A stretch of DNA of 64,000 nucleotides from Acidobacteriota bacterium (GTDB lineage Bacteria; Acidobacteriota; Terriglobia; Terriglobales; Acidobacteriaceae): assembly GCA_016196065.1 (NCBI GenBank), contig JACPYL010000010.1, positions 62,001 through 126,000 on the forward strand, read 5' to 3'. Positions 10,997 to 61,156 of the stretch are shown here, piece by piece. The position numbers and the translations under genes were made by a program. Each line of letters opens with the position of its first letter. The first letter of the stretch is position 1. The notes beneath the pieces were generated by a model. That model saw only the letters and a list, made by a program, of their open reading frames with translations. It did no database searches and had not been told where the DNA came from.

Positions 10997-11090
10997 AGCC
11001 ACGAGCTTCGAGCAACTTAATACGCTGCCGCGGAATGGTTAGCTCGCAGCCCATAGCTCGAAGCGCGGAGCCTACTGAGAACTGAGACCT

Positions 11091-12026
11091 ATGACCGATC
11101 AACCCGGATTATTGCGTGAAGGATTCTCCCGCGTCTGGCAGTACCAGCGCGTGCTTTGGTTCATGTTTGCAATCAGCCTCGTGCTCGGGCATTTTTCCGC
11201 TGGCGCGATCACGCACAAGCTGGAAGGGTTCACCGATCACAGCTTGCAGTCCCTGCGCCTCACCGCCATGTTCGACTATGGCACGTACTCGGCGTTGGAA
11301 TCGAATCCGGAGGTCAAGCTCTTCGAAGTTGCCGGCGTTTCGATGTCGTTCAGCCTGCTCTTTTTCGTGATCGTTCTTTTTTTGACCGGCGGAATTCTCG
11401 AAGCCTATCGTTCCGGCCGCACGCTCACCACTCGCGAGTTTTTTGAAGCATCGGGCAGTTATTTCTGGCGCTGGGCGCGCTTGCTGGTCATGATGGTCAT
11501 CGTGATGATTCCGCCCCTGATGTTGTTGAAAGTGGTGACCGATAAGCCGACCACAATGATGATGAGTGCCGCACAAGAAAAGACCGGATTCTGGCTTCTC
11601 TTCGGTGGACTCGGTCTGATCATACTGGTCCTGATGTGCATCCGCCTGTGGTTCGACATGGCCCAGGTCCGTGCTGTCGTCGAAGAAGAAACACGCATGT
11701 GGCGCAACGCAGGCCGCGCCTTCAAACTCACTTTCAAGAATTTCGGATCCTTGTTCTGGATGTACTTCCGCATCTCTCTGGTCGGATGGCTCGTACTGGC
11801 ATTGGGCCTCTACATCTGGGCAAAGATGCCTCCGGCGCGGTCCCAAATGACATTTTTGATTTTGGAACTGGTCGTCCTCTTCGGATTCGGAACGCGTCTC
11901 TGGCAGCGAGCCTGCGAGATGATCTGGTATCAGCGCCGTTTTCTTGCACCTCTGACGTTGCCGGTTCCAGTGCCAGTCGCGCCAGCTTCGAGCCCATTAT
12001 TGACCATAGCGCCGCCACCGCAGTAG
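11091..12026 (+). CDS. Polytopic membrane protein of unknown function
   Basis: The 311-residue product has about six hydrophobic segments: residues 22-39 (LWFMFAISLVLGHF), about 83-103 (SFSLLFFVIVLFLTGGIL), about 130-146 (LLVMMVIVMIPPLMLL), about 166-184 (FWLLFGGLGLIILVLMCI), about 227-245 (RISLVGWLVLALGLYIW) and about 253-267. No recognised catalytic motif is visible. It follows the M1 peptidase by 94 bp on the same strand. The spacer carries an inverted pair GCTTCGAGC (11005-11013) and GCTCGAAGC (11056-11064), so co-transcription is possible but not certain. Confidence 0.8.
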   Translation: MTDQPGLLREGFSRVWQYQRVLWFMFAISLVLGHFSAGAITHKLEGFTDHSLQSLRLTAMFDYGTYSALESNPEVKLFEVAGVSMSFSLLFFVIVLFLTGGILEAYRSGRTLTTREFFEASGSYFWRWARLLVMMVIVMIPPLMLLKVVTDKPTTMMMSAAQEKTGFWLLFGGLGLIILVLMCIRLWFDMAQVRAVVEEETRMWRNAGRAFKLTFKNFGSLFWMYFRISLVGWLVLALGLYIWAKMPPARSQMTFLILELVVLFGFGTRLWQRACEMIWYQRRFLAPLTLPVPVPVAPASSPLLTIAPPPQ

Positions 12027-12137
12027 TCGTAGCGCCGGCGTCCCTCCGCCTGTCGCGGGGGCATCGTGCGCCCGCTGGTCGAAGGAAGACACCAAGCGCG
12101 GTTCTGCCATGACCTCCGCGCTGCTAGAATCTCCCCA

Positions 12138-13190
12138 ATGAAGAAACTTCGTCCAGCGCTGCTCTGTCTTCTGTTGGCCGTGGCGCTTCAAGCCGCCGAA
12201 GAGACCAAGCTCAGTCCATTGCCCGTCGCCTTATCCAACAATGCTGTGGTCATGACTCACGCTGGTAAAGAGTCCAGAATTCTTTCCTTCATGGGTATCG
12301 GCGCCAAGAAGACGTGGAACGATATTTCCAACAAGGTTTTTTCCCTGGACCTCCCCACCGGCAAGTGGACCGAAGTTCGATCGGTTCCCGGAGTGGCCGG
12401 ACGCCTCGCTGCTTCCGCCGCTTCATTCCGTGACCAGATCGTTCTGATCGGTGGTTATGTCGTCGATGGCCAAGGTGGAGAAGTGACCGTTCCCGACGTC
12501 AACATTTATTACCCCGACGAGAATCGTTGGTATCGCGGCGAGGATACTCCGACTCCCGTGGACGATTCCGTAGTCGGCGTTTATCGAGAGCGCTACGTTT
12601 ACCTGGTAAGTGGATGGTCAAAGACCGAACCGACCCGCAAGGTTCAGATCTACGACACCGAGAAAAATAAATGGATGGAAGGAACACCTATCCCCGGTAC
12701 ACCGGTGTTCGGGCATTCCGGGACAGTCGTTGGCGACACCATTGTTTACGTGGATGGTGCGTACAAGAATCCCAACGGCCCGAACCCCAAGTACATTGCA
12801 TCCAGCGAATGCTGGATCGGCAAGATCGCGAAGGCCGATCCCACCAAGATTGAATGGACCAAATTGCCCGAACATCCCGGTTCAGCCCGATATCGCATTG
12901 CGGCCGGCGCCGCCGACAATAAGATCTACTTCTCAGGGGGCACCGACAATCCTTATAACTATGATGGCATTGGCTATAACGGACAGCCTTCCGAGCCTTC
13001 CCCGGTGACATTTGCCTTTAACTTGAAGAGCGGTAAGTGGGAAACGATCAGCGAAAATACTCCCGATCCGGTAATGGATGCCCGCGGTCTTCTCGTAACC
13101 CGCCGGGGTCTGTTAATCGTGGGCGGCATGGAAAAAGGCCAGCAAGTTACGGCCAAAGTTGCCATTGTAAAAACCTCTCCCGCGAAGTAA
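12138..13190 (+). CDS. Exported kelch-like beta-propeller protein
   Basis: Starting at the ATG at 12138 gives 350 residues with a signal peptide (MKKLRPALLCLLLAVALQA). Repeats of about 50 residues with kelch features are visible: a GG pair after a hydrophobic strand (QIVLIGGYVVDG, KIYFSGGTDNP, GLLIVGGMEKG) and spaced Tyr/Trp (VNIYYPDENRWYRG, VQIYDTEKNKWMEG). These fit a propeller of the galactose-oxidase/kelch type. Similar proteins include sialate mutarotases, but no catalytic residues can be assigned. An upstream in-frame start would add a region with no signal peptide, so it was not chosen. Confidence 0.82.
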   Translation: MKKLRPALLCLLLAVALQAAEETKLSPLPVALSNNAVVMTHAGKESRILSFMGIGAKKTWNDISNKVFSLDLPTGKWTEVRSVPGVAGRLAASAASFRDQIVLIGGYVVDGQGGEVTVPDVNIYYPDENRWYRGEDTPTPVDDSVVGVYRERYVYLVSGWSKTEPTRKVQIYDTEKNKWMEGTPIPGTPVFGHSGTVVGDTIVYVDGAYKNPNGPNPKYIASSECWIGKIAKADPTKIEWTKLPEHPGSARYRIAAGAADNKIYFSGGTDNPYNYDGIGYNGQPSEPSPVTFAFNLKSGKWETISENTPDPVMDARGLLVTRRGLLIVGGMEKGQQVTAKVAIVKTSPAK

Positions 13191-13254
13191 CCTGTCTGCC
13201 GCCCGGACGGGTGGATGGATAGGGGTTTTCGCGTGCCCAAAGCACAGCGCGACT

Positions 13255-13276
13255 GCGTCACGATTGGGCGTGACGC
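13255..13276. promoter_or_regulatory. Inverted repeat upstream of glutamate dehydrogenase
   Basis: GCGTCACG and CGTGACGC form a perfect 8-bp inverted repeat with a 6-base spacer, 118 bp before the gdhA start. It could be an operator, or simply a transcription-end hairpin of the kelch-like gene. No T tract follows. Confidence 0.35.
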
Positions 13277-13393
13277 CTATCACGGCAGAGCTTCTCCCGC
13301 AGGCTTTCAATGTTCGCAGCCGCACTTCTTGCGGTGTCCCTGACGACTGACATTCTGTCATTCTCAAAATAAAAAATTCGGAGGCTACAGCCC

Positions 13394-14791
13394 ATGACTA
13401 CCGTGATGGAACCGCCCAAAATGAATCTCGCGGCGGAATACATTTCTCAAACCATGAGTCTCGTGAAAGCCAAGAATCCAGCCGAGCCTGAATTCCACCA
13501 GGCCGTCCTGGAAGTGTTCGACTCCTTGCGGCTCGTGCTCGACCGTCATCCTGAGTATCAGGAAGCAAGAATTCTGGAACGCATCACCGAACCCGAACGC
13601 GTCCTGATGTTCCGCGTCCCCTGGTTCGACGACCGCGGCAACGTGCAAGTGAACCGTGGTTTCCGCATCGAAATGAACAGCGCCATCGGACCTTATAAAG
13701 GAGGCCTGCGCTTCCACTCGTCAGTGAATCTCGGCATCCTGAAGTTTTTGGCCTTTGAACAGGTTTTCAAAAACTCGCTGACTACGCTGCCCATGGGCGG
13801 CGGCAAGGGTGGATCCGATTTCGATCCCAAGGGAAAGAGCGACAACGAAGTGATGCGTTTCTGCCAGAGTTTCATGACCGAACTGGCGCACCACATTGGG
13901 CCGAACACGGATGTGCCCGCGGGCGACATCGGCGTGGGCGGCCGCGAAATCGGTTTCCTGTTTGGACAATACAAACGCATGCGCAACGAATTTTCGGGCG
14001 TCCTGACCGGCAAGGGCCTGGCTTGGGGCGGTTCGCTGATTCGTCCCGAAGCCACCGGCTACGGTTGCGTTTACTTCGCCCAGGAAATGTTGAAGACCCG
14101 GAACCAGACCCTCGAAGGCAAGACTTGTCTAGTCTCGGGCAGCGGCAACGTCTCGCAGTACACAGTTGAAAAACTTCTTGATCTGGGTGCGAAGCCGGTA
14201 ACTCTCTCTGACTCCGACGGCGTGATTTACGACGCTGACGGTATCAATCGGGAGAAACTCGCCTTCGTGATGGAGTTGAAGAACAATCGTCGCGGACGCA
14301 TCAAGGAGTACACGGAGAAATTCCGAAGCGCCATCTACAGCCCGACCGACCGGAAACTCGATCACAACTGGCTGTGGGCGATCAAAGCGGATTGCGCGTT
14401 CCCGAGCGCCACGCAGAATGAGATCAACGCAAAAGACGCGGTCAATCTCATTAAGAATGGCGTCTATGTGGTCAGCGAGGGAGCGAACATGCCGAGCACC
14501 CTCGAAGCCACACGACTGTTCCTCGAAGCGAAAGTCCTTTATGGTCCTGCCAAGGCAGCCAATGCCGGCGGCGTGGCCACGTCAGGACTGGAAATGGCAC
14601 AGAACAGCATGCGCATCTCCTGGTCGCGTGAAGAAGTGGACGATCGTCTCCACAAGATCATGATCTGCATTCACAAAAACTGCTTTGAAACGGCCGAAAA
14701 ATACGGCACGCCCGGCAACTATGTGAACGGCGCCAATATCGCTGGCTTCCTGAAAGTGGCCAATTCGATGCTGGACCAGGGCCTGGTTTAG
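13394..14791 (+). CDS. gdhA: Glutamate dehydrogenase, hexameric NADP-type
   Basis: The 465-residue length and motifs match hexameric bacterial GdhA: substrate-binding region GPYKGGLRFH (about 96-105), the catalytic-lysine loop LPMGGGKGGSDFDPKG, VPAGDIGVGGREIGFL, and the Rossmann segment SGSGNVSQYTVEKLL. The enzyme interconverts 2-oxoglutarate plus ammonium and glutamate in the cytoplasm. GGAGG 9 bases upstream supports the start. NADP specificity is inferred from similarity to the E. coli-like subfamily and is not proven. It ends in a bidirectional-terminator-like hairpin facing the convergent ankyrin gene. Confidence 0.96.
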   Translation: MTTVMEPPKMNLAAEYISQTMSLVKAKNPAEPEFHQAVLEVFDSLRLVLDRHPEYQEARILERITEPERVLMFRVPWFDDRGNVQVNRGFRIEMNSAIGPYKGGLRFHSSVNLGILKFLAFEQVFKNSLTTLPMGGGKGGSDFDPKGKSDNEVMRFCQSFMTELAHHIGPNTDVPAGDIGVGGREIGFLFGQYKRMRNEFSGVLTGKGLAWGGSLIRPEATGYGCVYFAQEMLKTRNQTLEGKTCLVSGSGNVSQYTVEKLLDLGAKPVTLSDSDGVIYDADGINREKLAFVMELKNNRRGRIKEYTEKFRSAIYSPTDRKLDHNWLWAIKADCAFPSATQNEINAKDAVNLIKNGVYVVSEGANMPSTLEATRLFLEAKVLYGPAKAANAGGVATSGLEMAQNSMRISWSREEVDDRLHKIMICIHKNCFETAEKYGTPGNYVNGANIAGFLKVANSMLDQGLV

Positions 14792-14880
14792 AGAACGGCA
14801 CTAGCACTGGCATTTAGCAAAAACGGGCCGCAGCCACACCATCCCCGGCGAGGCGGCGGCCCGATCGAACTTCATCCGTA

Positions 14881-14902
14881 GAGACGGGGCTTGCCTCGTC
14901 TC
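14881..14902. terminator. Palindrome between convergent gdhA and ankyrin genes
   Basis: The 22-base palindrome GAGACGGGGC-TT-GCCTCGTCTC (one mismatch pair) lies 2 bp beyond the ankyrin gene's stop and downstream of gdhA. It belongs to a family with copies at 23651-23672 and 38675-38692. Two of the three copies are located between convergent genes, fitting a role as a two-way transcription stop. Confidence 0.6.
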
Positions 14903-14903
14903 T

Positions 14904-16412: not shown

Positions 16413-16703
16413 ACGACCTCCTTTCAAATCGTGCCCATCGTCCGCATAACGGGCTGAAAGAAGGTCCAGCAACTGCAGGATTCGAAGAGGTGGGAAAATC
16501 CCTTTCCGCGGACCGGATGCGCCCTTGTGCGCTAGAGAAGTATAGCGAGTCGTTGCCCGATCGCGCAAAGTCCGCAAGACACACGAACGAGAAGAACGGA
16601 TGGATCCGATTCGATCCATCCGCCTCGCTGGCACGATGATTCCATGTCATGGGACGATCATTGCCAGTTGCGCCCGCTCGAACGCGGGCAGGTCTGTAGA
16701 TTT

Positions 16704-16946: not shown

Positions 16947-17129
16947 GATGGGATTCACCCGCGCCCTTCCAGTGGAGGATTGACTGCTGGATTCAAACCG
17001 ATTAAAGGCCGCGAAAATGGAGTGCACAGTGACAGACAGCACCTCGGCGAGTGAGGCGCCTCACAAGGGGTAAGCCCAGTGGCTAAGGGCTATTTCTGAG
17101 TGCGGAGCGACTGAGTGCTAACGGCTGCC

Positions 17130-19316
17130 CTACCGTGCCCTCGCCAGCACCAGCGTCACATCGTCGGGCTGTTCCTTGTCGCCGATCCAGTCATCGACCG
17201 CGGCAGTGACAATCTCTGTAATCCTTGCGAGCGGCAGGTGCCGATTTTCGCGGACCAGGTCAAGCAGTCTCTGTTCTCCGAATTCCCCATAGTCGTTTTC
17301 GGGTTCCGTGACGCCGTCGCTGTAGGCCACAAAAATATCGCCGCGCCGAAGTTGCACGGTTGCTTCTGGATATTGCACATCCGAAAACAATCCCACCACC
17401 GTTCCGCCGCACGTCAGGTACTGGCAGGAGCCGTCTTCCGATATCAGAATCGGCGGCAGGTGTCCGGCATTGCTGTAGGTCAATCGACGGTCGGCTCCAT
17501 CGTAGATTCCCAAGAACAACGTCGCGTACTTTTCCTGCGGCGTGCTGTGGTAAAGCTGGTGATTCAGTAGCCCCAGCAGATTCGCCGACGATGCTTCCGC
17601 CCCTTTAATTTCCGAAGCGAGCATCAGATCGGCGCCGCCCGCCACTCCTGCCGCGACCGGCTCTCGCAGCAGGGGAACACCTTCCAGGCTGTACGCGCGT
17701 ACCGCCGAATGGATGGTCGCCATCAGCAGCGCCGCGGAAATTCCTTTGCCGCTGACGTCGCCTACGGCCAGGATCAGTTTGTCCGAATGCAGCGACAGGA
17801 AATCGTAGTAGTCGCCGCTCACCGTTCTCGCCGGACGGCAGAACCCGTGCACTTCCAGGCTTTCCAGTTGCTCAATCTTCTGCGGAAACAGTGTTGCTTG
17901 CACTTCCTGCGCAATCGCGAGTTCGTTTTCCAGCCGCTGCTTTTCTTTTTGATCGAGAATCAGTTTCTCGATCGAAGCCGTCATCGAATTGAAAGAATTG
18001 GCCAGCGTCGCCAATTGGTCGTTTGATTTGACCTGGATGCGATGACTGAAATCGGCGCGGTTGATGTGCTTGGTAGCTTCGTAAAGCTGAGCGACGGCCG
18101 AAGTGATGCTGCGCGTCAACCGTGTTCCGATGAACAGAGCCAGGAGTTCGATGATTGCGAAAACGATCGCCACAACCAGCAGGATGTATTCGACGCCTCG
18201 CGCAAGGTCTCCCAAGGCCGCGAACAGCCGGTCGTAAAGAATGGACGGCCGCGTTTGTACGCGCACCAGCGCTCCTGCACGTTGCCGTTCGCCGGTCGTG
18301 CCACCCCAGTCAACCACTGACAGGGGCGTGCCAAAGGTGATTTCACGATCGAACAGGCTCGACGAAGCCGGGACCGTTCCGGCAATGAATGTCTGCCCAA
18401 GTTGGTGCGTCTCGCCCGAAACCGTGACTTTGGGCTGCCCCTGGCTGATATCAAGCCCGGTGCGTTTTGGATCCGCAGTTGCTTGACTGGGTGGGGGAGC
18501 GGTCGATGGCGCAGGCGCTGCCGGCTTTTCAACCGTCCCGTAAAGCGTGATTTCCCCGAGGTTGTTGGCAATTTCCTCCATCAGGGAACGATCCAGGGGC
18601 TCACTGGACACGACGTAAACCGGCTCCGCTTTCGTCTTTGCCTGGCTCGCCGCTCGCAGGTACAGGTGATCGTGGTCGCGTACGATCTCGCGAAAGTCTT
18701 CTTTCAGGAAGACTGGAAATGACATCGCAGTCGTACCTGCAGGCCCCGAGCAACTTGGCGGCAGCTGTTTCCCGTGCCAGGCGCAGACCTGGCGCCGCGA
18801 CCAGTCGGCATCATGGGAGCGCATTCCTGCGATGGTTTCACCCGTCGGCCGCTGGTTGCCATCGAACTGCGTGCTCAATTCATTGGCGATAGCACGGTTC
18901 GCCGCTTCCATGCTGCGCAAGTGGCTGGTCATTTCCGACGTGACCACAAAACTGGCAAACTGTCCCGCGAGCAGGTAAAGAGTGACGGTAGAAATCACTA
19001 CCAACAAGACGACCGGGATCACCCCGATAAAAACGTAGGTCACGATCAGCCGGTTGCGCAGCCGCCATAACATCTGGGACCGAAGCCAGCGAAACCCAAC
19101 GATGGTGAACAGGAGAATCGCCAGCCCACTCAGGAAACTGACCCAGCCGCCCAGGCTGCTCGCGACGGCTGGGCTCAGATGCCCACTCAACAACTGGACG
19201 AGAAATATGACGATATCCAGGGCAAGCACGTACACACCGGCACGCGCTGTGCGGGAATCAGGCCACAGGCCGGCGTCCCGCAGCTTGCTCTCGATTTCGA
19301 GTGGTACCAGTCTCAT
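17130..19316 (-). CDS. Membrane-bound PP2C/SpoIIE-type serine phosphatase with HAMP domain
   Basis: The 728-residue product has an N-terminal membrane block (residues about 26-70, then 90-122, LIVTYVFIGVIPVVLLVVIS). A periplasmic sensor-like region of about 240 residues follows, then a further TM helix (ILLVVAIVFAIIELLALFIG) leading into a HAMP linker (TKHINRADFSHRIQVKSNDQ). The C-terminal about 250 residues are a SpoIIE/RsbU PP2C domain: SGDYYDF, LAVGDVSGKGISAALLMAT, YSNAGHLPPIL, FVAYSDGVTEPEN, with metal-binding Asp residues. Such proteins dephosphorylate anti-sigma-factor antagonists, but no such partner is encoded in this window. It sits in a minus-strand run with HIT and RlpA-like genes. 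Confidence 0.93.
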   Translation of the reverse strand: MRLVPLEIESKLRDAGLWPDSRTARAGVYVLALDIVIFLVQLLSGHLSPAVASSLGGWVSFLSGLAILLFTIVGFRWLRSQMLWRLRNRLIVTYVFIGVIPVVLLVVISTVTLYLLAGQFASFVVTSEMTSHLRSMEAANRAIANELSTQFDGNQRPTGETIAGMRSHDADWSRRQVCAWHGKQLPPSCSGPAGTTAMSFPVFLKEDFREIVRDHDHLYLRAASQAKTKAEPVYVVSSEPLDRSLMEEIANNLGEITLYGTVEKPAAPAPSTAPPPSQATADPKRTGLDISQGQPKVTVSGETHQLGQTFIAGTVPASSSLFDREITFGTPLSVVDWGGTTGERQRAGALVRVQTRPSILYDRLFAALGDLARGVEYILLVVAIVFAIIELLALFIGTRLTRSITSAVAQLYEATKHINRADFSHRIQVKSNDQLATLANSFNSMTASIEKLILDQKEKQRLENELAIAQEVQATLFPQKIEQLESLEVHGFCRPARTVSGDYYDFLSLHSDKLILAVGDVSGKGISAALLMATIHSAVRAYSLEGVPLLREPVAAGVAGGADLMLASEIKGAEASSANLLGLLNHQLYHSTPQEKYATLFLGIYDGADRRLTYSNAGHLPPILISEDGSCQYLTCGGTVVGLFSDVQYPEATVQLRRGDIFVAYSDGVTEPENDYGEFGEQRLLDLVRENRHLPLARITEIVTAAVDDWIGDKEQPDDVTLVLARAR

Positions 19317-19348
19317 ACAGGCGCCGATGTCAGCGCATCACTATGTGT

Positions 19349-19632: not shown

Positions 19633-19676
19633 GTTTTTGCTAGTCACCAACCACTAACCACTAGCCACTGTTTTAC

Positions 19677-21240: not shown

Positions 21241-21347
21241 AGGTCAAAGGTGAGAGGTCAGATTGCAGAGGTTAGAATTCCCGGAGCCATGCGGTCCCGC
21301 CTTGTGAGGCTTTTACCTACGCAATTCGACCTCTCACCTCTAACCTT
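21241..21347. repeat. Word-array inverted repeat
   Basis: The left arm (21241-21266, words AGGTCAAAGG, TGAGAGGTCAG) and the right arm (21321-21347, words GACCTCTCACC, TCTAACC) are complementary at about 22 of 26 positions, separated by about 54 bases. It lies in the divergent spacer between the small helical protein and the NTF2-like lipoprotein. Confidence 0.7.
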
Positions 21348-21810: not shown

Positions 21811-22992
21811 ATGTCAGCGTCACCAACAACTGCATCCGTAAAGACGCAGCGTGCCGCGCCTCCCGCACTTGGCAAGAACCTCCCCAGCTTCCGTCGCGCT
21901 CTTCTCCGTTGGTATGACGCCAATCATCGCGATCTTCCGTGGCGCAGGACCCGGGATCCCTACCGCATCTGGATCTCCGAGATCATGCTGCAACAGACAC
22001 GCGTGGCCGCGGTCCTCGAACACTACCGTCTTTTTCTGGAGCGCTTTCCCGACATAAGAGCGCTGGCCGCCGCTCCCGAAAGCGCCGTCCTCGCCGCCTG
22101 GAGCGGCCTCGGCTACTACCGTCGCGCTCGCATGATGCGCCAGTGCGCGCAGAAACTCGTGGAAGAAAATGGCGGCTGTTTTCCTGCAACGTCGCTCGCC
22201 CTCCAGTCTCTTCCCGGTATTGGACGCTACACTGCCGCCGCCATTGCCAGCATTGCCTTCGGCGAACCGATAGCGGTGGTGGATGGCAACGTCGAACGCG
22301 TCCTCGAACGCATCGCCGGCCGCCAACGAACGAAAAAAGAATTCTGGCAGCAGGCACAGGCCTTGCTCGAAGAATCACGCCCCGCAGATTTCAACCAGTC
22401 CATGATGGAACTGGGTGCACTGGTATGCACATCCCGTCAACCGAAATGTAATGTCTGTCCGATCCGCAAGTGGTGTGCGACACGAGGCGAAGTCCCACGC
22501 ACCCAACTGCAGTCAGGCCAGTCCAAGAAAGAAATCTGGTACACGCTGGAGGAACGCGGCCAACGCCTTCGTCTGATCCAGCGCCCCGCGAACGTGTCCC
22601 TCATGGCCGGCATGTGGGAGTTACCTGAGGCACTTCCGACGGTCGCTTCCCGATCCAAGTCCGGCGCAGGCACCAAGGTCGATGCAACTAACGGCGACGC
22701 TCTCAACTCCACAACCCGATCCGCCAAGCCAGCCGCGAAGCGGCGCAAGCCTACAGCCCACGGCGCAAGCCGTGGGTCACCGGCGGGTCATGACAAAGCC
22801 CCAAACGGGCGAAAGAGACTCTCCGCCGCCCCCTGGAGAACCTTTCGCCATTCCATCACCACCACCAACTACACCGTCCACGTAGTCCGCGGACGCGCCA
22901 CCCATGGCAAGTGGGTCGCAATCGCAAAAATTTCCGATCTCCCCATCACCGGCCTGACGCGTAAAATCCTAAAAGCAGCCGGGATCATCTAA
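21811..22992 (+). CDS. mutY: A/G-specific adenine glycosylase
   Basis: The 393-residue protein matches MutY. The catalytic Glu is in WISEIMLQQTRV, the HhH motif is LPGIGRYTAAAIAS, and the catalytic Asp is in VVDGNVERVL. A [4Fe-4S] cluster is formed by C-x6-C-x2-C-x5-C (CTSRQPKCNVCPIRKWC). It removes adenine mispaired with 8-oxoguanine. The C-terminal NUDIX-like domain starts near residue 245 (EIWYTLEERGQRLRLIQRP) and is interrupted by a low-complexity insert (about 285-335) containing a perfect palindrome in frame. The start ATG immediately follows the previous stop. Confidence 0.96.
   Translation: MSASPTTASVKTQRAAPPALGKNLPSFRRALLRWYDANHRDLPWRRTRDPYRIWISEIMLQQTRVAAVLEHYRLFLERFPDIRALAAAPESAVLAAWSGLGYYRRARMMRQCAQKLVEENGGCFPATSLALQSLPGIGRYTAAAIASIAFGEPIAVVDGNVERVLERIAGRQRTKKEFWQQAQALLEESRPADFNQSMMELGALVCTSRQPKCNVCPIRKWCATRGEVPRTQLQSGQSKKEIWYTLEERGQRLRLIQRPANVSLMAGMWELPEALPTVASRSKSGAGTKVDATNGDALNSTTRSAKPAAKRRKPTAHGASRGSPAGHDKAPNGRKRLSAAPWRTFRHSITTTNYTVHVVRGRATHGKWVAIAKISDLPITGLTRKILKAAGII
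22757..22776. repeat. Palindromic element inside mutY
   Basis: CCCACGGCGCAAGCCGTGGG is an 8-bp perfect stem with a GCAA tetraloop. It codes in frame for part of the linker within the MutY C-terminal domain (residues about 316-322, AHGASRG). The flanking codons are also unlike the rest of the gene (many Lys, Arg, Ala, Pro). A similar compact GC palindrome elsewhere in the window lies in a spacer. Confidence 0.8.
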
Positions 22993-23091
22993 AGGAACGG
23001 GGATTAACAAGAGTTCCTGATACCTGACACCTAAGACCTGGCACCTGCTCCTATGACTTTTCTCGATCGCATTTTCGGAGGTTCCAAAAGC

Positions 23092-33466: not shown

Positions 33467-33533
33467 CGTCGTTCGGCGTTCGTCCTTCGCAAAAAGTGAT
33501 TGGCGAACGACCAACGACAAGCGACCAACGACG
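33467..33533. repeat. Word-array inverted repeat between the AAA+ and VWA genes
   Basis: The left arm (33467-33490: CGTCGTTCGGCGTTCGTCC) and right arm (33502-33533: GCGAACGACCAACGACAAGC and onward) carry repeats of a CGTTCGTC / GACCAACGAC-type word; GTCGTTCG (33468-33475) pairs exactly with CGAACGAC (33504-33511). The array ends 5 bp before the VWA start codon. Confidence 0.7.
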
Positions 33534-33538
33534 TCCCT

Positions 33539-41441: not shown

Positions 41442-41640
41442 AGGTCGAAGTGAGGTCAGAGGTTTGAGGCGAGAGGTCAGAGGTGAAAGCCTAAAGAAAC
41501 TGTCATCCCGAGCGAAGCGAGGGATCTGCATCTGGCCGGCGAACTGCAGATCCCTCGCTTCGCTCGGGATGACAGTTTTTTAAGGGGGTTAACCTCTGCA
41601 ATCCGACCTCAGACTTCTGACCTTACAGAAGACCTCTGAC
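41442..41640. repeat. Nested inverted repeats: word array flanking a perfect 34-bp inverted repeat
   Basis: The outer arms (41442-41483 and 41605-41640) are arrays of an AGGTCAGAGG / CCTCTGACC word in opposite orientation. Nested between them is a perfect inverted repeat with 34-bp arms at 41497-41530 and 41545-41578, starting AAACTGTCATCCCGAGCGAA, with a 14-base loop and trailing Ts. The outer right arm ends at the stop codon of the TPR gene. Confidence 0.9.
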
Positions 41641-41946: not shown

Positions 41947-42065
41947 AGTGAAAAGAAGGTCTCAGGTCTTAGGTGTCAGGTCTCAGGCATTAGATTAACA
42001 GCCAATTGCTCAATGCCAGGTGCCAATCCCCGCGCTACAATATCGTTTCTCTTGGAGATCGCGAC

Positions 42066-44501: not shown

Positions 44502-45542
44502 ATGCCAACCCTCTGGTATTGGATTGTCGCAGTGATGGTCACCGCCTACGTCGTCCTGGACGGCTTCGATCTGGGCGCGGGCGCAATTTACCTTGCCGTC
44601 GCCAAGACCGATGAAGAGCGCCGCCGAGTGCTGGCCTCGATTGGGCCGGTGTGGGACGGCAACGAAGTCTGGCTGCTGGCAGCGGGCGGCACACTGTATT
44701 TCGCGTTCCCGCAACTCTACGCATCCAGCTTCAGCGGCTTCTATCTGCCTCTGCACATGGTTCTCTGGCTGCTGATCCTGCGCGGTATCGGCATTGAATT
44801 CCGCGCCCATGTCCGCAACCCTGTCTGGCAGAATTTCTTTGACGTTGTGTTCAGCGGTGCCAGTATCCTGCTGACCATCTTCTTCGGAGCTGCGCTGGGA
44901 AACGTTGTGCGCGGTGTGCCGCTCGATGCCACCGGATATTTCTTTGAACCACTGTGGACGAACTTCTTTAACCTCGGTCCACAAACCGGCATTCTGGATT
45001 GGTACACGGTGCTGATCGGAGTGCTGGCGCTGGTGACACTGGTTGCTCATGGATCGCTCTATGTTGCGGTCAAGACCGATGACGATCTCGGCCGACGCGC
45101 GAAAGGCGTGGCGCTATTGTGCTGGCCCCTGCAATTTTTCCTGACAATCGTCAGCCTGGTGGCGACCTACTTTATTCGTCCCGAGGTGATGAACAACTAC
45201 GACAAACACAAGATTGGCCTGTTGGTTCCGGTATTGGTGTTCGGATGTCTCGCGGTGCTGTTGTGGGCAAATCCCAAAGGCAAGGAAAAGCTCGCGTTCA
45301 TCGCATCCAGCCTTTACATCACGGGGATGCTGGTAGGCGCGGCGTTTGCGCTTTATCCCGTAGTGTTGCCGGCACGCGACCGGCAATTCAGTCTTACGAT
45401 TCACAACACTGCCGCGGGAAATCACGGCCTCAGCGTCGGCCTGGCCTGGTGGACGATCGGCTTCGTGCTGGCGACTGCGTATTTCGTATTTCTCTACCGT
45501 ATGTTTCGTGGAAAAGTTCAGGCGGGAGAAGGACACTACTAG
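44502..45542 (+). CDS. cydB: Cytochrome bd ubiquinol oxidase subunit II
   Basis: The 346-residue membrane protein starts MPTLWYWIVAVMVTAYVVLD with the typical DGFDLGAGA motif, then SIGPVWDGNEVWLLAAGGTL, both highly conserved in CydB. It pairs with CydA to form the oxidase core and is co-transcribed (2-bp gap). No CydX-like small ORF follows in the 80-bp spacer, and the assembly genes cydC/cydD are not in the window. Confidence 0.97.
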   Translation: MPTLWYWIVAVMVTAYVVLDGFDLGAGAIYLAVAKTDEERRRVLASIGPVWDGNEVWLLAAGGTLYFAFPQLYASSFSGFYLPLHMVLWLLILRGIGIEFRAHVRNPVWQNFFDVVFSGASILLTIFFGAALGNVVRGVPLDATGYFFEPLWTNFFNLGPQTGILDWYTVLIGVLALVTLVAHGSLYVAVKTDDDLGRRAKGVALLCWPLQFFLTIVSLVATYFIRPEVMNNYDKHKIGLLVPVLVFGCLAVLLWANPKGKEKLAFIASSLYITGMLVGAAFALYPVVLPARDRQFSLTIHNTAAGNHGLSVGLAWWTIGFVLATAYFVFLYRMFRGKVQAGEGHY

Positions 45543-45614
45543 CAATCAGCATTCAGCACTCGGATTCCTTTATGCTATGCCGGACGGAACCGCTGACGGC
45601 TGATTGCTGAGTGC
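45541..45614. repeat. Word-array inverted repeat after cydB
   Basis: AGCAATCAGC (45541-45550) pairs exactly with GCTGATTGCT (45599-45608). Both arms carry ATCAGCATTCAGCACT-type words and flank about 48 bp. The left arm overlaps the cydB stop codon, the right arm ends about 10 bp before the next ATG. No ribosome site is visible between. Confidence 0.7.
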
Positions 45615-45623
45615 TTTTCACCC

Positions 45624-47280: not shown

Positions 47281-47345
47281 CATTTTCTCTGTAACCTCCG
47301 CGACCTCTGTGGTTCACGCTTTCTCAACCACGGAGGTCAAAGGGG
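47281..47345. repeat. Word-array inverted repeat supplying the next gene's ribosome site
   Basis: ACCTCTGTGGTT (47303-47314) pairs with AACCACGGAGGT (47326-47337; one mismatch). The array runs on as GGGGCACGGAGAAAACC, whose GGAG is the Shine-Dalgarno sequence of the aldo/keto reductase gene. Confidence 0.75.
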
Positions 47346-53675: not shown

Positions 53676-53864
53676 AGGGAGCCTCCACGATACATAAGAA
53701 GAGGGGATGTCTCCTAGCAGGAATGATTGAAAGCAGACAGCGAGAGCGTATTCATGCTCCATTCATTTGACTTCCCGCGTAACAGGAAGCACAATCTCCC
53801 GCAGCCATATCCCCCGTATTGGCTTGAACCGCATTCCAGGTTCCCATCTGTAGGAGGCCCTGCC

Positions 53865-56549: not shown

Positions 56550-56607
56550 TCGCGCTGGCGCAACTGGCCGGAATAGTGCGAGCTCCATCAAGTCGTTCCT
56601 AGGTTCT

Positions 56608-56641
56608 GTTGTTGGTGTAATGGCGATTTTTCACCAGTTAT
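56608..56641. repeat. Dispersed 34-base repeat, copy 2
   Basis: Matches about 28 of 34 positions of 23827-23860 and shares the core ATGGCGATTTTTC. It sits between the convergent SBBP and lipoprotein genes and reaches the stop codon of the latter. Confidence 0.55.
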
Positions 56642-57579
56642 CACGGAATGTGCGGCTTGGGATCACCCACCACGCCCTGTGCCGGTGCTGCCGGGACACG
56701 TTTGTAGCTCCACTGTACGAACTGGCCCTCTTGCCATTGATACGTCACCACGTCGAAATTCTTCGCACAACAGTTCGGGCTGCCATCGTCACTGCGTCCG
56801 GTGATGGTCAAAGTGAGGGATTTCTCGTCGAACGTTGCGCCTGTACCTGTCGCGTGTGAATCATAGACAAACTGCTGCGTTATCACTGGATGGGCCGCCC
56901 GAATTACGAACAACTGCACGACTCCTGTCCTCATGCAACTGCCGCCGCAGTCGGTCCAGTCTGTCATCACTAAGGTATGGTGCCCACCACCGTTCGTGTA
57001 GTCAAAACAGAAAACATGGTCGAGTCTGGCCGACTCATAGCCTGAGTCGGACTTCCGCTCATATTTCCCATTTTTTAGGTCTGCGCTCCAGTCCGCGTTT
57101 TCGCCAAACATGCGAATGTTTCGGAAGTCTACGCTACACACATCGCTTGCGCTCTGTTCTAGAACACGGTTCGGCGCGGAAACATCGACTGCGGGAGCCC
57201 TGCGAACATCCTGCCCCACCACCTTGCGGGTGAGTCCGACAAATCTCGCCTTCCCACCTTCCATCGTTCGGTGCAGCGCAAAGTCGTAAGTCTTGCCATT
57301 CGGAGACTCCCCTGCAAAAAGCCGCGACGGGCTGTGGATGGCCAACACAACGACAGCACCCGCAGAAAAATTCGCGACGGCGGGAACGGCTGATTCGATA
57401 TGCACGGTCAACGCAAATCTCGGGTCAACATCAACGAGCGTGACCTGCCCTGAAAAATCCGTGAGCGGGACGACGGCCTGCACACTCGCTCTGAGGTGAA
57501 TCTCATCGTTGGTGCTTTTTGCTTGGCCTGCGGCGCACGCCGAGAGACTCATGGCGAGAATGGCAAGGAAACGAAGCAT
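56641..57579 (-). CDS. Lipoprotein of unknown function
   Basis: The ATG at 57579 gives 312 residues with a lipoprotein-type signal (LRFLAILAMSLSAC, lipobox LSAC). No Shine-Dalgarno sequence is obvious. The mature protein is beta-rich (HLRASVQAVVPLTDFSGQVT, RFALTVHIESAVPAVANFSA) with several Cys (SDVCSVDFRN, DHVFCFDYTNGGGHHTLVM, DWTDCGGSCMRTG, SPNCCAKNFD) that may form disulfides. No family recognised. A longer frame up to 57702 was rejected since it lacks a signal peptide. Confidence 0.72.
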   Translation of the reverse strand: MLRFLAILAMSLSACAAGQAKSTNDEIHLRASVQAVVPLTDFSGQVTLVDVDPRFALTVHIESAVPAVANFSAGAVVVLAIHSPSRLFAGESPNGKTYDFALHRTMEGGKARFVGLTRKVVGQDVRRAPAVDVSAPNRVLEQSASDVCSVDFRNIRMFGENADWSADLKNGKYERKSDSGYESARLDHVFCFDYTNGGGHHTLVMTDWTDCGGSCMRTGVVQLFVIRAAHPVITQQFVYDSHATGTGATFDEKSLTLTITGRSDDGSPNCCAKNFDVVTYQWQEGQFVQWSYKRVPAAPAQGVVGDPKPHIP

Positions 57580-57619
57580 GGCGCGTTGGGGACTAAGCCG
57601 ACTCTCAATGATAACTGTT

Positions 57620-57637
57620 GTTAACAGGCGATTACAC
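57620..57637. repeat. Direct repeat GTTAACAGGCGATTACAC, copy 1
   Basis: An 18-base exact repeat shared with 57922-57939, about 300 bp apart, flanking the small membrane-protein gene. Flanks such as ATGATAACT and ATGATTGAC also look related, so each copy may be part of a longer decayed duplication. Confidence 0.7.
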
Positions 57638-57715
57638 TTACTGACCCATTCATTTGCGCCCTGCCGCTCGCGGAGTCCTGCTAGCACGTACCGAGAAGCC
57701 AAACTCCGACTGCAA

Positions 57716-57874
57716 TCAACACGATGTCACGGTCAACATTCCAGTCGCTTCGCTTGCATTTGCAGGTTGAAGCGTGCGGGTCTGAGGAAATAGCAGGAAC
57801 TTAACGTTCATATATACGAGCAGTACGCCTAGCAGCAATCGCCACCAGGAAAGCTCTCGTTTCATGTGGTTCAT
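57716..57874 (-). CDS. Small single-pass membrane protein
   Basis: A 52-residue frame on the minus strand (MNHMKRELSWWRLLLGVLLV) reads on as YMNVKFLLFPQTRTLQPAN and ends at a TGA at 57716. It has a positively charged N terminus, one TM helix (RLLLGVLLVYMNVKFLLF) and a short polar tail, i.e. a small membrane protein. An inner ATG (57865) is an alternative start. It lies on the same strand as the lipoprotein gene. Codon composition is normal. It is too short for certainty. Confidence 0.55.
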   Translation of the reverse strand: MNHMKRELSWWRLLLGVLLVYMNVKFLLFPQTRTLQPANASEATGMLTVTSC

Positions 57875-58098
57875 TTCACAGCAGGAAGATGGTTTTGTCT
57901 ACGTCGGTCAGGATGATTGACGTTAACAGGCGATTACACCAACTACTCTGCGAATCCCTCGCTCGCCGGCCTGTGCGATCGCTCTCACCCCATCTCGCCC
58001 CACTCGCTAGAGCGCGCGTCCCGGCACAAGTCTCAAAACCCAACCCGGGTGGGGTTGTATCACCTTTTCCCTATGTATTGCTAACCCCCTGCCGCGCC

Positions 58099-58128
58099 TT
58101 GACAGTTCTTCCCGGCGCTCCCTAGAAT
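58099..58128 (+). promoter_or_regulatory. Promoter of the hrcA-grpE-dnaJ cluster
   Basis: TTGACA (58099-58104), an 18-base spacer and TAGAAT (58123-58128) form a near-consensus sigma-70-type promoter. The predicted start near 58135 leaves a leader of about 77 bases before the hrcA ATG. Confidence 0.7.
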
Positions 58129-58134
58129 CGAAAA

Positions 58135-58196
58135 GAGGCTCTGAATCCACATTCTAAGCCTCTGCATCTAAAGTATTTAGATAGAGCCTCCGGCTC
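58135..58196 (+). promoter_or_regulatory. Structured 5' leader of hrcA with alternative hairpins
   Basis: GAGGCTCT (58135-58142) is complementary to AGAGCCTC (58183-58190), closing over a perfect hairpin ATCTAAAGTATTTAGAT (58166-58182). The same AGAGCCTC can instead join GAGCC-TCC-GGCTC (58184-58196). The two foldings exclude each other. The stem begins at the predicted transcription start. Confidence 0.5.
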
Positions 58197-58211
58197 CAGA
58201 TTCGAAACAAC

Positions 58212-59249
58212 ATGCCACCGGGACCAGCCGGCGGTCGGGAACGCGAAATCCTGACTGCCATCGTCGAGACTTTTATCGCCACCGGAGAACCGGTAGGCTC
58301 GCGCACACTTGCGCGTACCAGTCGTGAAGGTTTGAGCGCGGCCACCATCCGTAACGTGATGGCAGATCTGGCGGATGCAGGTTTTCTGGAACAGCCGCAC
58401 ACGTCAGCCGGGCGCGTTCCGAGTCCGGAAGCGTATCGCTACTACGTCAAGCAACTGAGTGGCGAGACGCGGCTGTCGCACGAAAACGAAAGCATCATCC
58501 AGGAGAGTCTCACCGGCGTCACCGATGTGCAGGAGTTCATGGAGCGGACGTCGCATGTGCTCTCGCTGATCTCGCGAAGTGTGGGAGTCACGGTGGCTAC
58601 GAGTGGTCCGCGTAACGCTCTGGAGCACGTTTATTTTTCGCGGCTGGGGGATCAGAAAGTTCTGGCCGTCGTGGTGACGAGGTCGGGAGTGGTTCGGGAT
58701 CGCGTCCTGCGCCTCGATCTGCCGCAATCGGAACTTGATCTGGCCGCTCACTACGTCAATGAAAACTTTCGCGGCTGGATCATGGAAGATATGCGCGCCG
58801 AGATTGCCCGGCGTCTGGACAAAGAACGCAGCGAATATGACCGCTTGATGGGATCGATTGCGCAGCTCTATCAGCAAGGTGCTTTGACCACCAGCGACGC
58901 GCCGGAAGCGGTATTTGTGGAAGGGGCCGCCAACCTCGTGACCGGAGAGGAAGACCGGCAACGCCTGCAGGACATGCTGCGAACGCTGGAAGAAAAAGAA
59001 AAAGTCGTCAAGCTGCTGGGCGCGTATCTCGACACGCGCCAGGAAGCAGTGCGCGTCGTCATCGGGCTCGATGCCACGATGCCGTCCATGCAGAATTTTG
59101 TGCTGATCGGCGCTCCGGCGCGAGTCGGAGGGGAAGTGATGGGATCGCTCGCTGTGATTGGGCCGACCCGCCTTGACTATCAGCACACCATGTCGGCCGT
59201 TTCGTATATCGCGAGGCTGTTCGACAAATTGTTAAATGAATCGGAGTAA
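58212..59249 (+). CDS. hrcA: Heat-inducible transcription repressor HrcA
   Basis: The 345-residue protein starts with the HrcA winged-helix segment (REREILTAIVETFIATGEPV, GSRTLARTSREGLSAATIRN, VMADLADAGFLEQPHTSAGR), followed by GAF-like and dimerisation parts (LGAYLDTRQEAVRVVIGLDA, GSLAVIGPTRLDYQHTMSAV). HrcA represses class I heat-shock genes by binding CIRCE. It is first in hrcA-grpE-dnaJ; no CIRCE is visible upstream in this window, so autoregulation may use another site or the leader. No Shine-Dalgarno sequence precedes the ATG. Confidence 0.97.
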   Translation: MPPGPAGGREREILTAIVETFIATGEPVGSRTLARTSREGLSAATIRNVMADLADAGFLEQPHTSAGRVPSPEAYRYYVKQLSGETRLSHENESIIQESLTGVTDVQEFMERTSHVLSLISRSVGVTVATSGPRNALEHVYFSRLGDQKVLAVVVTRSGVVRDRVLRLDLPQSELDLAAHYVNENFRGWIMEDMRAEIARRLDKERSEYDRLMGSIAQLYQQGALTTSDAPEAVFVEGAANLVTGEEDRQRLQDMLRTLEEKEKVVKLLGAYLDTRQEAVRVVIGLDATMPSMQNFVLIGAPARVGGEVMGSLAVIGPTRLDYQHTMSAVSYIARLFDKLLNESE

Positions 59250-59258
59250 TTGGGAAGT

Positions 59259-59831
59259 ATGGGTAAAGGAAACGGAAAGACCGATACCAGGAATCTCGAT
59301 GTGGAACACGAGTTGCCGCCCGCAGAGGGCGGAGAAGAGCGGCCTGACCCAACCCCGTTAGATAGCTCGGCGTCATCCGAAATCGATAAAGTACGAGCGG
59401 AACGCGACGCGTTGCTCGATCGGCTGGCGCGACTGCAGGCGGAATTTGACAATGCCCGCAAGCGCGCCGTGCGCGAGCAGCAGGACTTCCGCGAATTCGC
59501 CGCTGCTGACGTCATCAAGAGCATCCTGCCGGTGCTGGATAGCTTCGAGCGCGCGCTGAAAACGCCTTCCAGCGGCTCGAATGCAGATGATCTGCGGGGC
59601 GGCTTGGAACTGATTTACCGTCAATTTCAGGACGCGCTGCAAAAACTCGGAGTGCAGTCCATCGAGGCGGTCGGAAAGCCGTTCGATCCTCGTGTGCATG
59701 AAGCGGTCGAAATGGTAGAGACAAAAGACGTGGAAGACCACCAGGTTTTGGACGAATTTCAGCGTGGCTACAATTACAAAGGACGCATGCTGCGTCCAGC
59801 GATGGTGCGAGTGGCTAAGAACAGTGATTAG
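59259..59831 (+). CDS. grpE: Nucleotide exchange factor GrpE
   Basis: The 190-residue protein has an acidic/disordered N terminus, a long coiled-coil (EIDKVRAERDALLDRLARLQ, AEFDNARKRAVREQQDFREF) and the GrpE beta domain (GVQSIEAVGKPFDPRVHEAV, YNYKGRMLRPAMVRVAKNS). It releases ADP from DnaK. The ATG at 59259 lies 10 bp after the hrcA stop; a TTG at 59250 would overlap less well with the ribosome site. Its final codons and stop fall inside the left arm of a word array. Confidence 0.96.
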   Translation: MGKGNGKTDTRNLDVEHELPPAEGGEERPDPTPLDSSASSEIDKVRAERDALLDRLARLQAEFDNARKRAVREQQDFREFAAADVIKSILPVLDSFERALKTPSSGSNADDLRGGLELIYRQFQDALQKLGVQSIEAVGKPFDPRVHEAVEMVETKDVEDHQVLDEFQRGYNYKGRMLRPAMVRVAKNSD

Positions 59832-59913
59832 TGAATAGTGGTTGGTGACTAGTAAACTTCCGCACGCTGAGGTCGTTTTTCTAGCCACTCATCACTACCC
59901 ACTAACCACTGTT
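59819..59913. repeat. Word-array inverted repeat between grpE and dnaJ
   Basis: Arms 59819-59851 and 59881-59913 (33 bases each, complementary at 26 positions) flank a 29-base unique centre. The left arm is a run of AGTGATTAGTGAATAGTGG-type words, the right its inverse (CACTACCCACTAACCACTG). The array supplies the last codons of grpE. Confidence 0.85.
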
Positions 59914-59929
59914 TCGACGAAGGAGCAAT

Positions 59930-61063
59930 CTGGCTAACAAGAGCAAACGCGACTACTACGAGGTCCTTGGCGTCACTCGTACGTCTACCGACGTTGAGAT
60001 CAAGAGCGCTTACCGCAAGCTGGCGATGACGTATCATCCGGACCGCAATCCAAACAATCCCGAAGCGGAAGACAAATTCAAGGAGTTGACCGAAGCCTAC
60101 GCGATTCTGGCGGACGCCGAAAAACGTTCGTTGTACGACCGCTTCGGACACGCCGGACTGGGTGGCGCGTCGGGCGGCGCAGCCGGTTTCGATCCTGCGA
60201 TCTTCCAGGACTTCGGCGACATCTTCGGAGAATTCTTTGGCTTTGGCGACTTGTTCGGTGGCGGCGGAGGGCGTGGACGCTCTCGCGCTCAACGTGGCGC
60301 CGATCTGCGCGAGGATCTGAATCTCGAATTTGAAGAAGCTTTCTTCGGCGTTGAAAAGCACGTCAAGGTACGGCGGCATGAACCCTGCGATACATGTCGC
60401 GGATCGGGCGCTGCACCCGGCAAAGCGCCGGTCCAGTGCCGCTCCTGCAATGGTCGTGGGCAGGTACGCTATCAACAGGGATTCTTCAGCATCTCGCGCA
60501 CGTGTCCAACCTGCCAGGGTGCCGGCAGCGTGATCACTGATCCCTGCCCGAAGTGCAAGGGCGAAGGGCGACAAGTGCGTGAGCGCACGGTGGAAGCAAA
60601 AGTCCCCGCCGGAGTCGAAGACGGCACACGCATTCGCTTTTCCGGATATGGTGAGGCCGGGGCATTCGGCGGACCAGCCGGCGATCTCTACGTTGTCCTC
60701 CACGTCAAAGAGCATGCTTTTTTTGAGCGCGAGGGTAACGATCTTCATTGCGTTGTGCCGATTTCGTTTCCGCAAGCCGCGCTCGGCACCGAGATCGTCG
60801 TCGCGACCATGGAAGGCGAATACACACTCAAGGTTCCCGAAGGAACCCAGTCTGGAACATCATTTCGCATCCGGAATCGCGGCGTACCCGTTCTGAACGG
60901 TCATGGCAAGGGCGACCTTTACGTCGAAGTCCGCGTGCAAACGCCCGGCAAGCTCACAAAACGCCAACGCGAACTGCTAGGCGAGTTGGGACAACTCTCT
61001 CCCGTCGAAAACAAGCCGCAGAACCGGTCATTGCTGGGGAGAATGAAAGATATGTTCGCGTGA
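59930..61063 (+). CDS. dnaJ: Chaperone DnaJ, apparently starting at CTG
   Basis: The 377-residue protein shows the J domain (KRDYYEVLGVTRTSTDVEIK, then YHPDRN with HPD), Gly/Phe region, the four CxxCxGxG zinc motifs (CDTCRGSG, CRSCNGRG, CPTCQGAG, CPKCKGEG) and C-terminal substrate domains. The full J domain reads in frame from a CTG at 59930 with AAGGAG 4 bases upstream; no in-frame ATG, GTG or TTG precedes an ATG at 60026 that would lose half the J domain. So CTG is the likely start, or a base was misread. DnaK is not in the window. Confidence 0.95.
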   Translation: MANKSKRDYYEVLGVTRTSTDVEIKSAYRKLAMTYHPDRNPNNPEAEDKFKELTEAYAILADAEKRSLYDRFGHAGLGGASGGAAGFDPAIFQDFGDIFGEFFGFGDLFGGGGGRGRSRAQRGADLREDLNLEFEEAFFGVEKHVKVRRHEPCDTCRGSGAAPGKAPVQCRSCNGRGQVRYQQGFFSISRTCPTCQGAGSVITDPCPKCKGEGRQVRERTVEAKVPAGVEDGTRIRFSGYGEAGAFGGPAGDLYVVLHVKEHAFFEREGNDLHCVVPISFPQAALGTEIVVATMEGEYTLKVPEGTQSGTSFRIRNRGVPVLNGHGKGDLYVEVRVQTPGKLTKRQRELLGELGQLSPVENKPQNRSLLGRMKDMFA

Positions 61064-61066
61064 GGC

Positions 61067-61156
61067 AGTTCTCAGTTCCCGGTTCCCAGTTCTCAGTATC
61101 GGAACCGACCGGCCGGAGAGCTTTTGCTGAGAACTGACCGCTGAGAACTGAGAACT
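61067..61156. repeat. Word-array inverted repeat between dnaJ and rsmE
   Basis: Arms 61067-61096 and 61127-61156 (30 bases each, complementary at about 24 positions) carry words such as AGTTCTCAG and CTGAGAACT. They flank 30 bp of unique DNA. The right arm ends 7 bp before the rsmE ATG, which has no ribosome site. Confidence 0.85.

What the first reader, a model, noticed from the sequence alone, without database searches (positions are those of the whole stretch)
10997..61156. A class of intergenic 'word-array' inverted repeats with different words at each locus
At least eight spacers carry short degenerate words (7-12 bases) repeated two to five times and arranged as imperfect inverted repeats around a unique centre: 11005-11064, 21241-21347, 33467-33533, 41442-41640, 45541-45614, 47281-47345, 59819-59913, 61067-61156. 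One-armed arrays are seen at 17070-17130, 19640-19670, 23008-23050 and 41953-41995. The word differs between loci (AGTTCTCAG, CCACTAACCA, AGGTCAGAGG, GTTCGTCC and others), so these are not simply copies of one repeat; the architecture is what is conserved. They often overlap stop codons of the upstream gene. This suggests a local generating process (slippage, template switching or palindrome-guided repair) or selection for a hairpin, rather than ordinary REP spread.
Basis: seen in the sequence. Interest (0 to 1): 0.72.

Follow-up and report, generated by a model that had tools for sequence, protein, structure and literature searches.

The report
Seven-base repeat hairpins between genes
Gaps between genes in this bacterium, including gaps in basic operons, often hold two facing runs of a seven-base word, and related species can keep such a pair in the same gap with a different word, which suggests short dispersed repeats that replace or overwrite one another.

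Summary
The "words" are degenerate heptads.

Words are not arbitrary: they share one consensus. The 30-base arm at 61067 recurs at 45 places in this genome (at most 3 mismatches; reversed control 0), and its modal form in 23 of 24 genus genomes. These are dispersed REPIN-like families: convergent arms, most often four units, around a variable centre, starting right after stop codons (34 of 57 within 8 nt; null maximum 29).

The surprise lies in orthologous spacers (dnaJ–rsmE, atpA–atpG, atpG–atpD). Many related genomes keep a convergent heptad pair in the same gap, with words that differ between genomes but agree between the two arms. No mover was found (0 of 6 Y1-transposase genes flanked), and a sense-RNA wobble test shows nothing. 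Replacement by other copies plus arm homogenisation fits best. Heptads in Xanthomonas, Nostoc and Beggiatoa are close known cases.

The parts
11005..11103 (.). Short AGCTTCG-type inverted stem around a unique centre, then a CTGAGAA array that runs to the downstream ATG
   Evidence: lag-7 cluster 11072-11103; G001 and G011 have full AGCTACG arms here, G023 and G019 lack the pair but keep the AACTGAG array
17070..17130 (.). Degenerate heptad remnant, below threshold
   Evidence: lag 7 = 0.41; counterpart in G023 is a clear heptad run
19639..19673 (-). One arm, word AGTGGTT in arm orientation
   Evidence: no array in G001 and G011, a two-armed AGGAGTC/AGGAGGC element in G023
21241..21347 (.). Two-armed AGGTCAG element with the AGATTGC heptad
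23012..23047 (-). One arm, word AGGTGTC in arm orientation, filling the gap before an ATG
   Evidence: absent in G001, G011 and G023
33467..33534 (.). Two-armed CGTTGGT/CGTCGTT element
41442..41640 (.). Two-armed AGGTCAG element; its centre holds a separate palindrome at about 41500-41575
41954..41993 (+). One arm, AGGTCTC/AGGTGTC
   Evidence: G001 has AGGTC-type, G011 AGTTCTC-type units in the same spacer
45536..45617 (.). Two-armed AGCATTC element
   Evidence: G019 has AGCCATC-type units in the same spacer
47281..47345 (.). Hairpin of another kind, not a heptad array
   Evidence: lag 7 = 0.26, lag 9 = 0.36; fold z -4.1
59819..59913 (.). Two-armed AGTGGTT element that overlaps the stop codon of the upstream gene (GrpE family)
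61065..61157 (.). Two-armed AGTTCTC element between the DnaJ-family gene (stop at 61063) and an RNA methyltransferase gene (ATG at 61164); type locus of the dispersed 30-base arm

Best explanation
The loci are members of a superfamily of short dispersed intergenic elements. Each full element is a convergent pair of arms, most often four heptads long, around a variable centre. The arms belong to word families (AGTTCTC, AGGTGTC, AGCTACG, CGTTGGT, AGGTCAG and others) that share one heptad consensus and occur at many loci. Shown: period 7, dispersed copies, inward polarity, placement right after stop codons, and same-site occupancy in related species with different words. Inferred: copies spread or overwrite one another through single-stranded or hairpin intermediates. 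Words at a site turn over by replacement with another family member and by template switching that makes one arm match the other. The 7-base period is kept by in-phase slippage. The enzyme that moves them is unknown.
For: Lag 7 stands out. 130 array words fit one consensus, log-likelihood -1083 against -1225 to -1239 in 10 letter-shuffled sets. The 61067 arm has 45 places (some overlap), reversed control 0; the modal unit order has 9 exact copies against 2, 0 and 0 for the three other orders that the search could show. Its modal form is in 23 of 24 genus genomes but in 2 of 297 across the phylum sample, own included: a lineage family. AGGTCAG loci share AGATTGC across species. Left arms carry the RG[CGT]Y motif inward in 34 of 45 pairs, 4 the other way, 7 ties. 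34 of 57 arrays in co-directional spacers start within 8 nt of the stop; uniform null mean 17.9, maximum 29 of 10,000 draws. dnaJ-rsmE: 15 of 19 spacers two-armed (14 by the shuffle test); same-genome left-right similarity 0.726 against 0.588 left-left and 0.638 right-right between genomes; 0 of 20,000 partner permutations. atpA-atpG and atpG-atpD repeat this. G009 and G015 share an identical right arm but differ in the left arm. G000, G001 and G019 share word and centre at atpA-atpG, while G011, closer to G001, has another word and no detectable centre similarity.
Against: No mobilising gene found: 0 of 6 Y1-transposase loci and 0 of 1 reverse-transcriptase locus has an array within about 1-1.5 kb. 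No target-site duplication was recognised. Centre homology across different words is weak: 4 of 62 orthologous pairs at p <= 0.01 against 0 of 71 non-orthologous (Fisher 0.051), and the distributions do not differ (Mann-Whitney 0.62). Within-genome arm agreement is partly circular, because spacers were chosen for inverted repeats. The cause of the period 7 is not shown.
Confidence: 0.5

Rival explanations
1. Selection keeps a hairpin between genes of an operon (mRNA stability, processing or insulation); the sequence that makes the hairpin is free, so words drift.
For: Orthologous spacers in the grpE-dnaJ-rsmE and atp operons keep convergent pairs with different words. Some genomes have unrelated palindromes in the same spacers, for example G004 at dnaJ and G008 at atpA-atpG. 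Arrays lie in co-directional spacers in 77 of 108 cases against 340 of 600 own spacers.
Against: Sense-strand G-U mismatches are not enriched over A-C (69 against 56, p = 0.28; a weak test). G007 and four genomes of genus g13 have 2-3 nt at atpA-atpG and no element. Free drift does not explain identical 30-base arms at many loci.
Confidence: 0.2
2. One reading: slippage and palindrome-guided template switching create arrays independently at each locus.
For: Arms of one locus match each other: own partner is the best of 32 right arms in 16 of 32 cases, in-register match beats unit permutation in 30 of 30 (the register was chosen by alignment). Template switching homogenises arms and inverts spacers in yeast (PMC8604942, abstract). 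The centre at 11005 in the own genome matches that of G001 inverted, p = 0.016, one of 6 comparisons.
Against: Identical unit order at many loci and in many species, the shared consensus, and the AGATTGC heptad shared across loci.
Confidence: 0.17
3. The heptads are binding sites for a protein (DNA or mRNA), as proposed for TAACTGA repeats in Beggiatoaceae, and are kept for regulation.
For: Shared consensus; four-unit mode, 73 of 158 arrays; TAACTGA scores better under the consensus than 96.7% of its letter shuffles.
Against: Words change at orthologous sites. Arrays abut stop codons, while closeness to start codons is not significant (22 of 57; 807 of 10,000 null draws reach it).
Confidence: 0.08

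Closest known systems
GGGAATC and GGGGA(C/T)T heptad repeats of Xanthomonas and Nostoc (PMC4692102; passages, sections 10 and 16 read)
   Same: Heptads, intergenic, mostly about four units, near the upstream ORF; 70 and 75 convergent pairs in two Xanthomonas genomes; no known function
   Different: There one G-rich word per genome, discussed as G-quadruplex. Here many words per genome, GGG or CCC in only 12 of 158 unit consensuses, and word turnover at orthologous spacers
TAACTGA repeats of Beggiatoaceae, Cyanobacteria and Bacteroidetes (PMC4679880; abstract and section 8 read)
   Same: Intergenic heptads; the word lies one base from a rotation of AACTGAG, the commonest word class here
   Different: Mostly direct repeats just upstream of start codons, one indirect repeat, related heptamers rarely repeated
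REP / REPIN elements (PMC3733652, abstract; PMC3116915, search listing only)
   Same: High-copy, intergenic, downstream of genes, paired in opposite orientation, several families per genome
   Different: A single arm here is a heptad array and not itself a palindrome; no constant GTAG/CGTC tag; no flanking RAYT-like gene
Heptamer over-representation among prokaryotic SSRs (Mrazek 2007, known here only as cited in PMC4692102)
   Same: Excess of period 7, attributed there to polymerase slippage
   Different: Families here are dispersed copies with fixed unit order

Membership tests
REP/REPIN | Dispersed high-copy intergenic repeat | tested here: met
   45 places of one arm, reversed control 0
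REP/REPIN | Two repeats in inverted orientation around a spacer | tested here: met
   45 heptad-based inverted pairs among 136 arrays, loops 1-74 nt
REP/REPIN | GTAG or CGTC tag at one end | tested here: not met
   Looked for inside the array: GTAG in 23, CGTC in 30 of 158 arrays; 1 and 3 of the 37 AGTTCTC/AGGTSTC-type arrays
REP/REPIN | Transposase gene (RAYT) flanked by the repeats | tested here: not met
   0 of 6 Y1_Tnp loci have arrays in the flanks fetched; more distant flanks not tested
Xanthomonas/Nostoc-type heptad repeats | Period 7, intergenic | tested here: met
Xanthomonas/Nostoc-type heptad repeats | G-tracts able to form G-quadruplexes | tested here: not met
   GGG in 4 and CCC in 8 of 158 unit consensuses
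Xanthomonas/Nostoc-type heptad repeats | One word per genome | tested here: not met
   35 word classes in 64 own arrays
Intrinsic terminators | G+C-rich stem followed by a T run | not tested
   The terminator scan was not run; by eye the 61067 element is followed by GTTCCCAATG, without a T run

The most novel reading that the evidence does not exclude
Some operon junctions (atpA-atpG, atpG-atpD, dnaJ-rsmE) act as slots that are held by a hairpin-forming repeat over genus-level time while the occupant is exchanged, word by word or whole, so that a hairpin at the junction, and not its sequence, is what the cell or the element family maintains. The copying machinery would act in 7-base steps.
Probability: 0.2. 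Interest if true: 0.85.

Novelty: new variant of a known kind. Interest (0 to 1): 0.62.

Why it matters
An excess of heptad repeats in bacteria has been noted and not explained (PMC4692102). This genus offers many word families in one genome, 24 held genomes with orthologous spacers, and word exchange inside basic operons. That lets spread, arm homogenisation and selection be told apart by comparison and simple deletion tests. It also shows that four-unit heptad arms occur without G-tracts, so a G-quadruplex cannot be the general reason for the four-unit preference.

Tried and rejected
Chance: rejected. RNA-level pairing by wobble bias: not significant; the set holds some inverted repeats that are not heptad arms and one run of N. 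RAYT or reverse-transcriptase link: no arrays in the fetched flanks. Centre = native spacer: G023 centre against the G001 and G011 spacers gave p 0.13 and 0.60. Centre homology across words: 5 of 120 dnaJ pairs at p <= 0.01 (centres cut by eye), 4 of 62 against 0 of 71 with an automatic cut: suggestive only. G008-G016 centres (different words): 1 of 5000 shuffles whole, 116 of 5000 after trimming 8 nt at each end. G-quadruplex: GGG or CCC in 12 of 158 unit consensuses. Common inner-edge motif: AAA within 7 nt after the last unit in 25 of 158, 11 and 14 in two comparison stretches: weak. Order test in the 1.91 Mb of locally held own and genus sequence found 1 exact copy of the modal order and 0 of the other 11: too few to tell. 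Known heptads GGGAATC, GGGGATT, GGGGACT, GTGATTA, CCCCAGT and CCCCAAT do not fit the consensus better than their shuffles; the 35 words from other phyla fit weakly (49 of 2000 shuffles reach them), the 19 from other Acidobacteriota clearly (0 of 2000).
Full report
What is there. All are present at the coordinates. The unifying feature is the period: self-match peaks at lags 7 and 14 in most loci. Scanning the window for runs with at least 15 of 21 matches at a lag gives 10 clusters at lag 7 and 8 at lag 14, but 0 at lags 8 and 10, 1 at lag 13 and 2 at lags 9 and 11. Sixty second-order Markov shuffles give a mean of 0.53 and a maximum of 2 at lag 7. The two loci without one are 17070, which is degenerate here but a clear heptad run in G023, and 47281, which is a hairpin of another kind.

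Setting. The window is G000:C10:62001-126000 of a 5.53 Mb assembly. The glutamate dehydrogenase of the window is 89% identical to that of the MAG "Acidobacteriaceae bacterium isolate bog_205", so this is an acidobacterium. I fetched 1.2 Mb more of the same contig and parts of relatives. With a stricter cut (16 of 21) lag 7 gives 54 runs in 1.26 Mb against 0 and 3 in two shuffles, 0 at lag 8 and 1 at lag 13. Relatives in the genus, other Acidobacteriota and even some other phyla show an excess too, though not every sample: G040 gave 0 in 0.04 Mb, and the order-level sample gave 9 against 3 and 2 in shuffles.

Words are one superfamily. A profile with free rotation and strand, fitted to 130 array consensuses, gives A-V-C-T-R-M-G in right-arm orientation, with log-likelihood -1083 against -1225 to -1239 for ten letter-shuffled sets. 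Words from other Acidobacteriota fit it (0 of 2000 shuffles), words from other phyla only weakly (49 of 2000).

They are dispersed copies. The left arm of the 61067 element has 45 places in the genome with at most 3 mismatches and none for the reversed control; some places overlap within one array. Nine of them are the same 30-mer with the unit order AGTTCTC-AGTTCCC-GGTTCTC-AGTTCTC-AG; of the three other orders of these units that this search could show, one occurs twice and two not at all. The modal 30-mer (at most 2 mismatches) is in 23 of 24 genomes of the genus, reversed control 0 in all 24, but (at most 1 mismatch) in only 2 of 297 genomes drawn across the phylum, one of them the own genome, the other G124 of another genus in the family with 14 places. 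AGGTCAG elements share the heptad AGATTGC at five own places and one each in G002 and G016.

Anatomy. Of 136 arrays in the own and genus samples 56 have a strong inverted repeat nearby (one of them a run of N), 45 of them heptad-based with centres of 1-74 nt. Left arms carry the RG[CGT]Y motif inward in 34 of 45, outward in 4, with 7 ties. Arms most often have four units (73 of 158) or five (41). Flanking genes are co-directional in 77 of 108 arrays outside called ORFs against 340 of 600 own spacers. In 57 co-directional spacers up to 400 nt the array starts within 8 nt of the upstream stop codon in 34; uniform placement gives 17.9 on average and at most 29 in 10,000 draws. Overlap with the stop was counted as distance 0. 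Closeness to the start codon is not significant (22; 807 of 10,000 draws reach it; start positions are rough).

Orthologous spacers. The gene before the 61067 element is of the DnaJ family and the one after it an RNA methyltransferase (rsmE is my name for it); upstream lies a GrpE-family gene. In 19 genomes of the genus with the whole dnaJ-rsmE spacer, 15 hold a convergent heptad pair, 14 of them above the shuffle maximum for the inverted repeat (G016 not). The rest are one-armed or degenerate (G012, G022), interrupted by a gene (G006) or hold another palindrome (G004). Words include AGTTCTC, AGGTCTC, AGCTCTC, AGGCTCT and AGCCATC. Taking simply the first and last 34 nt of these 15 spacers, the two arms of one genome are more alike (0.726) than left arms (0.588) or right arms (0.638) of different genomes, and no partner permutation of 20,000 reaches this. 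G009 and G015 share an identical right arm but have different left arms, and G021 and G017 have unlike arms: snapshots of one-arm change.

The atp operon repeats the picture. Between atpA and atpG 9 of 17 genus genomes, and 2 genomes of other genera, are two-armed by test; G023 has two arms with different words; G002 and G016 have short runs; G008 and G017 hold other palindromes; G007 and four genomes of genus g13 have only 2-3 nt. Between atpG and atpD 7 of 19 genus genomes and 5 others are two-armed. Same-genome arm similarity is 0.739 and 0.718 against 0.545 and 0.495 (left-left), 0 of 20,000 permutations each; this is partly circular, because spacers were picked for inverted repeats. At atpA-atpG the genomes G000, G001 and G019 share word and centre (0, 5 and 31 of 2000 shuffles for the three pairs), while G011, closer to G001 in sequence (83.5% against 75.0% for G019), has another word and no detectable centre similarity: a whole-element replacement. 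Elsewhere in the window 23008 is absent in G001, G011 and G023, and 19640 in G001 and G011.

Mechanism. Spread of copies is well supported; how they move is not. None of the six Y1-transposase genes, nor the one reverse-transcriptase gene, has arrays in the fetched flanks. Arm agreement at a locus fits template switching in hairpins, known to homogenise arms and invert spacers (PMC8604942, abstract); one centre at 11005 matches its counterpart in G001 inverted at p = 0.016, one of six comparisons. Whether words also change with the centre kept is unsettled: 4 of 62 orthologous centre pairs against 0 of 71 others at p <= 0.01, with no shift of the whole distribution. Selection for an RNA hairpin gets no support from G-U against A-C mismatches (69 to 56), but that test is weak.

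What is known. Xanthomonas has GGGAATC heptads, often four units, with 70 and 75 convergent pairs in two genomes, close to the upstream ORF, function unknown; Nostoc has GGGGA(C/T)T (PMC4692102, passages and sections 10 and 16). Beggiatoaceae have TAACTGA, mostly direct repeats (PMC4679880, abstract and section 8). REPs are paired, downstream of genes and multi-family (PMC3733652, abstract). My paper searches (listings capped) showed no description of heptad elements in Acidobacteriota or of word exchange at orthologous spacers. I rate the finding a new variant of a known kind.

Noticed in passing
window 22731-22776 (-): Acido-Lenti-1 RNA, the only Rfam match at gathering score in the window; it lies inside the ORF 21811-22992, on the other strand.
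   Followed up: no
window 41500-41575; own sample near 583731, 898421, 907836: A separate palindromic repeat (GTCATCCCGAGCGAAGCGAGGGATCTGC type) sits in the centre of the 41442 element; relatives of it recur at other own loci and in the atpG-atpD spacer of G012.
   Followed up: partly
window 47281-47345; L178 5046-5122: Hairpin with CTCTGTGG-type words and a possible period of 9; a similar inverted repeat is in genome G003 (L178).
   Followed up: no
dnaJ-rsmE, atpA-atpG and atpG-atpD spacers of G004, G008, G015, G017, G020: Unrelated palindromes such as GGACAGCCGCCCTCGGCTGTCC or AGGGGCTNNAGCCCC types occupy the same spacers where relatives hold heptad pairs.
   Followed up: partly
L032-L108 (other phyla): Heptad arrays with other words occur in MAG contigs labelled Anaerolineae, Omnitrophota, Desulfobacterales, Kiritimatiellae and Bacteroidales, some in inverted pairs.
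   Followed up: partly
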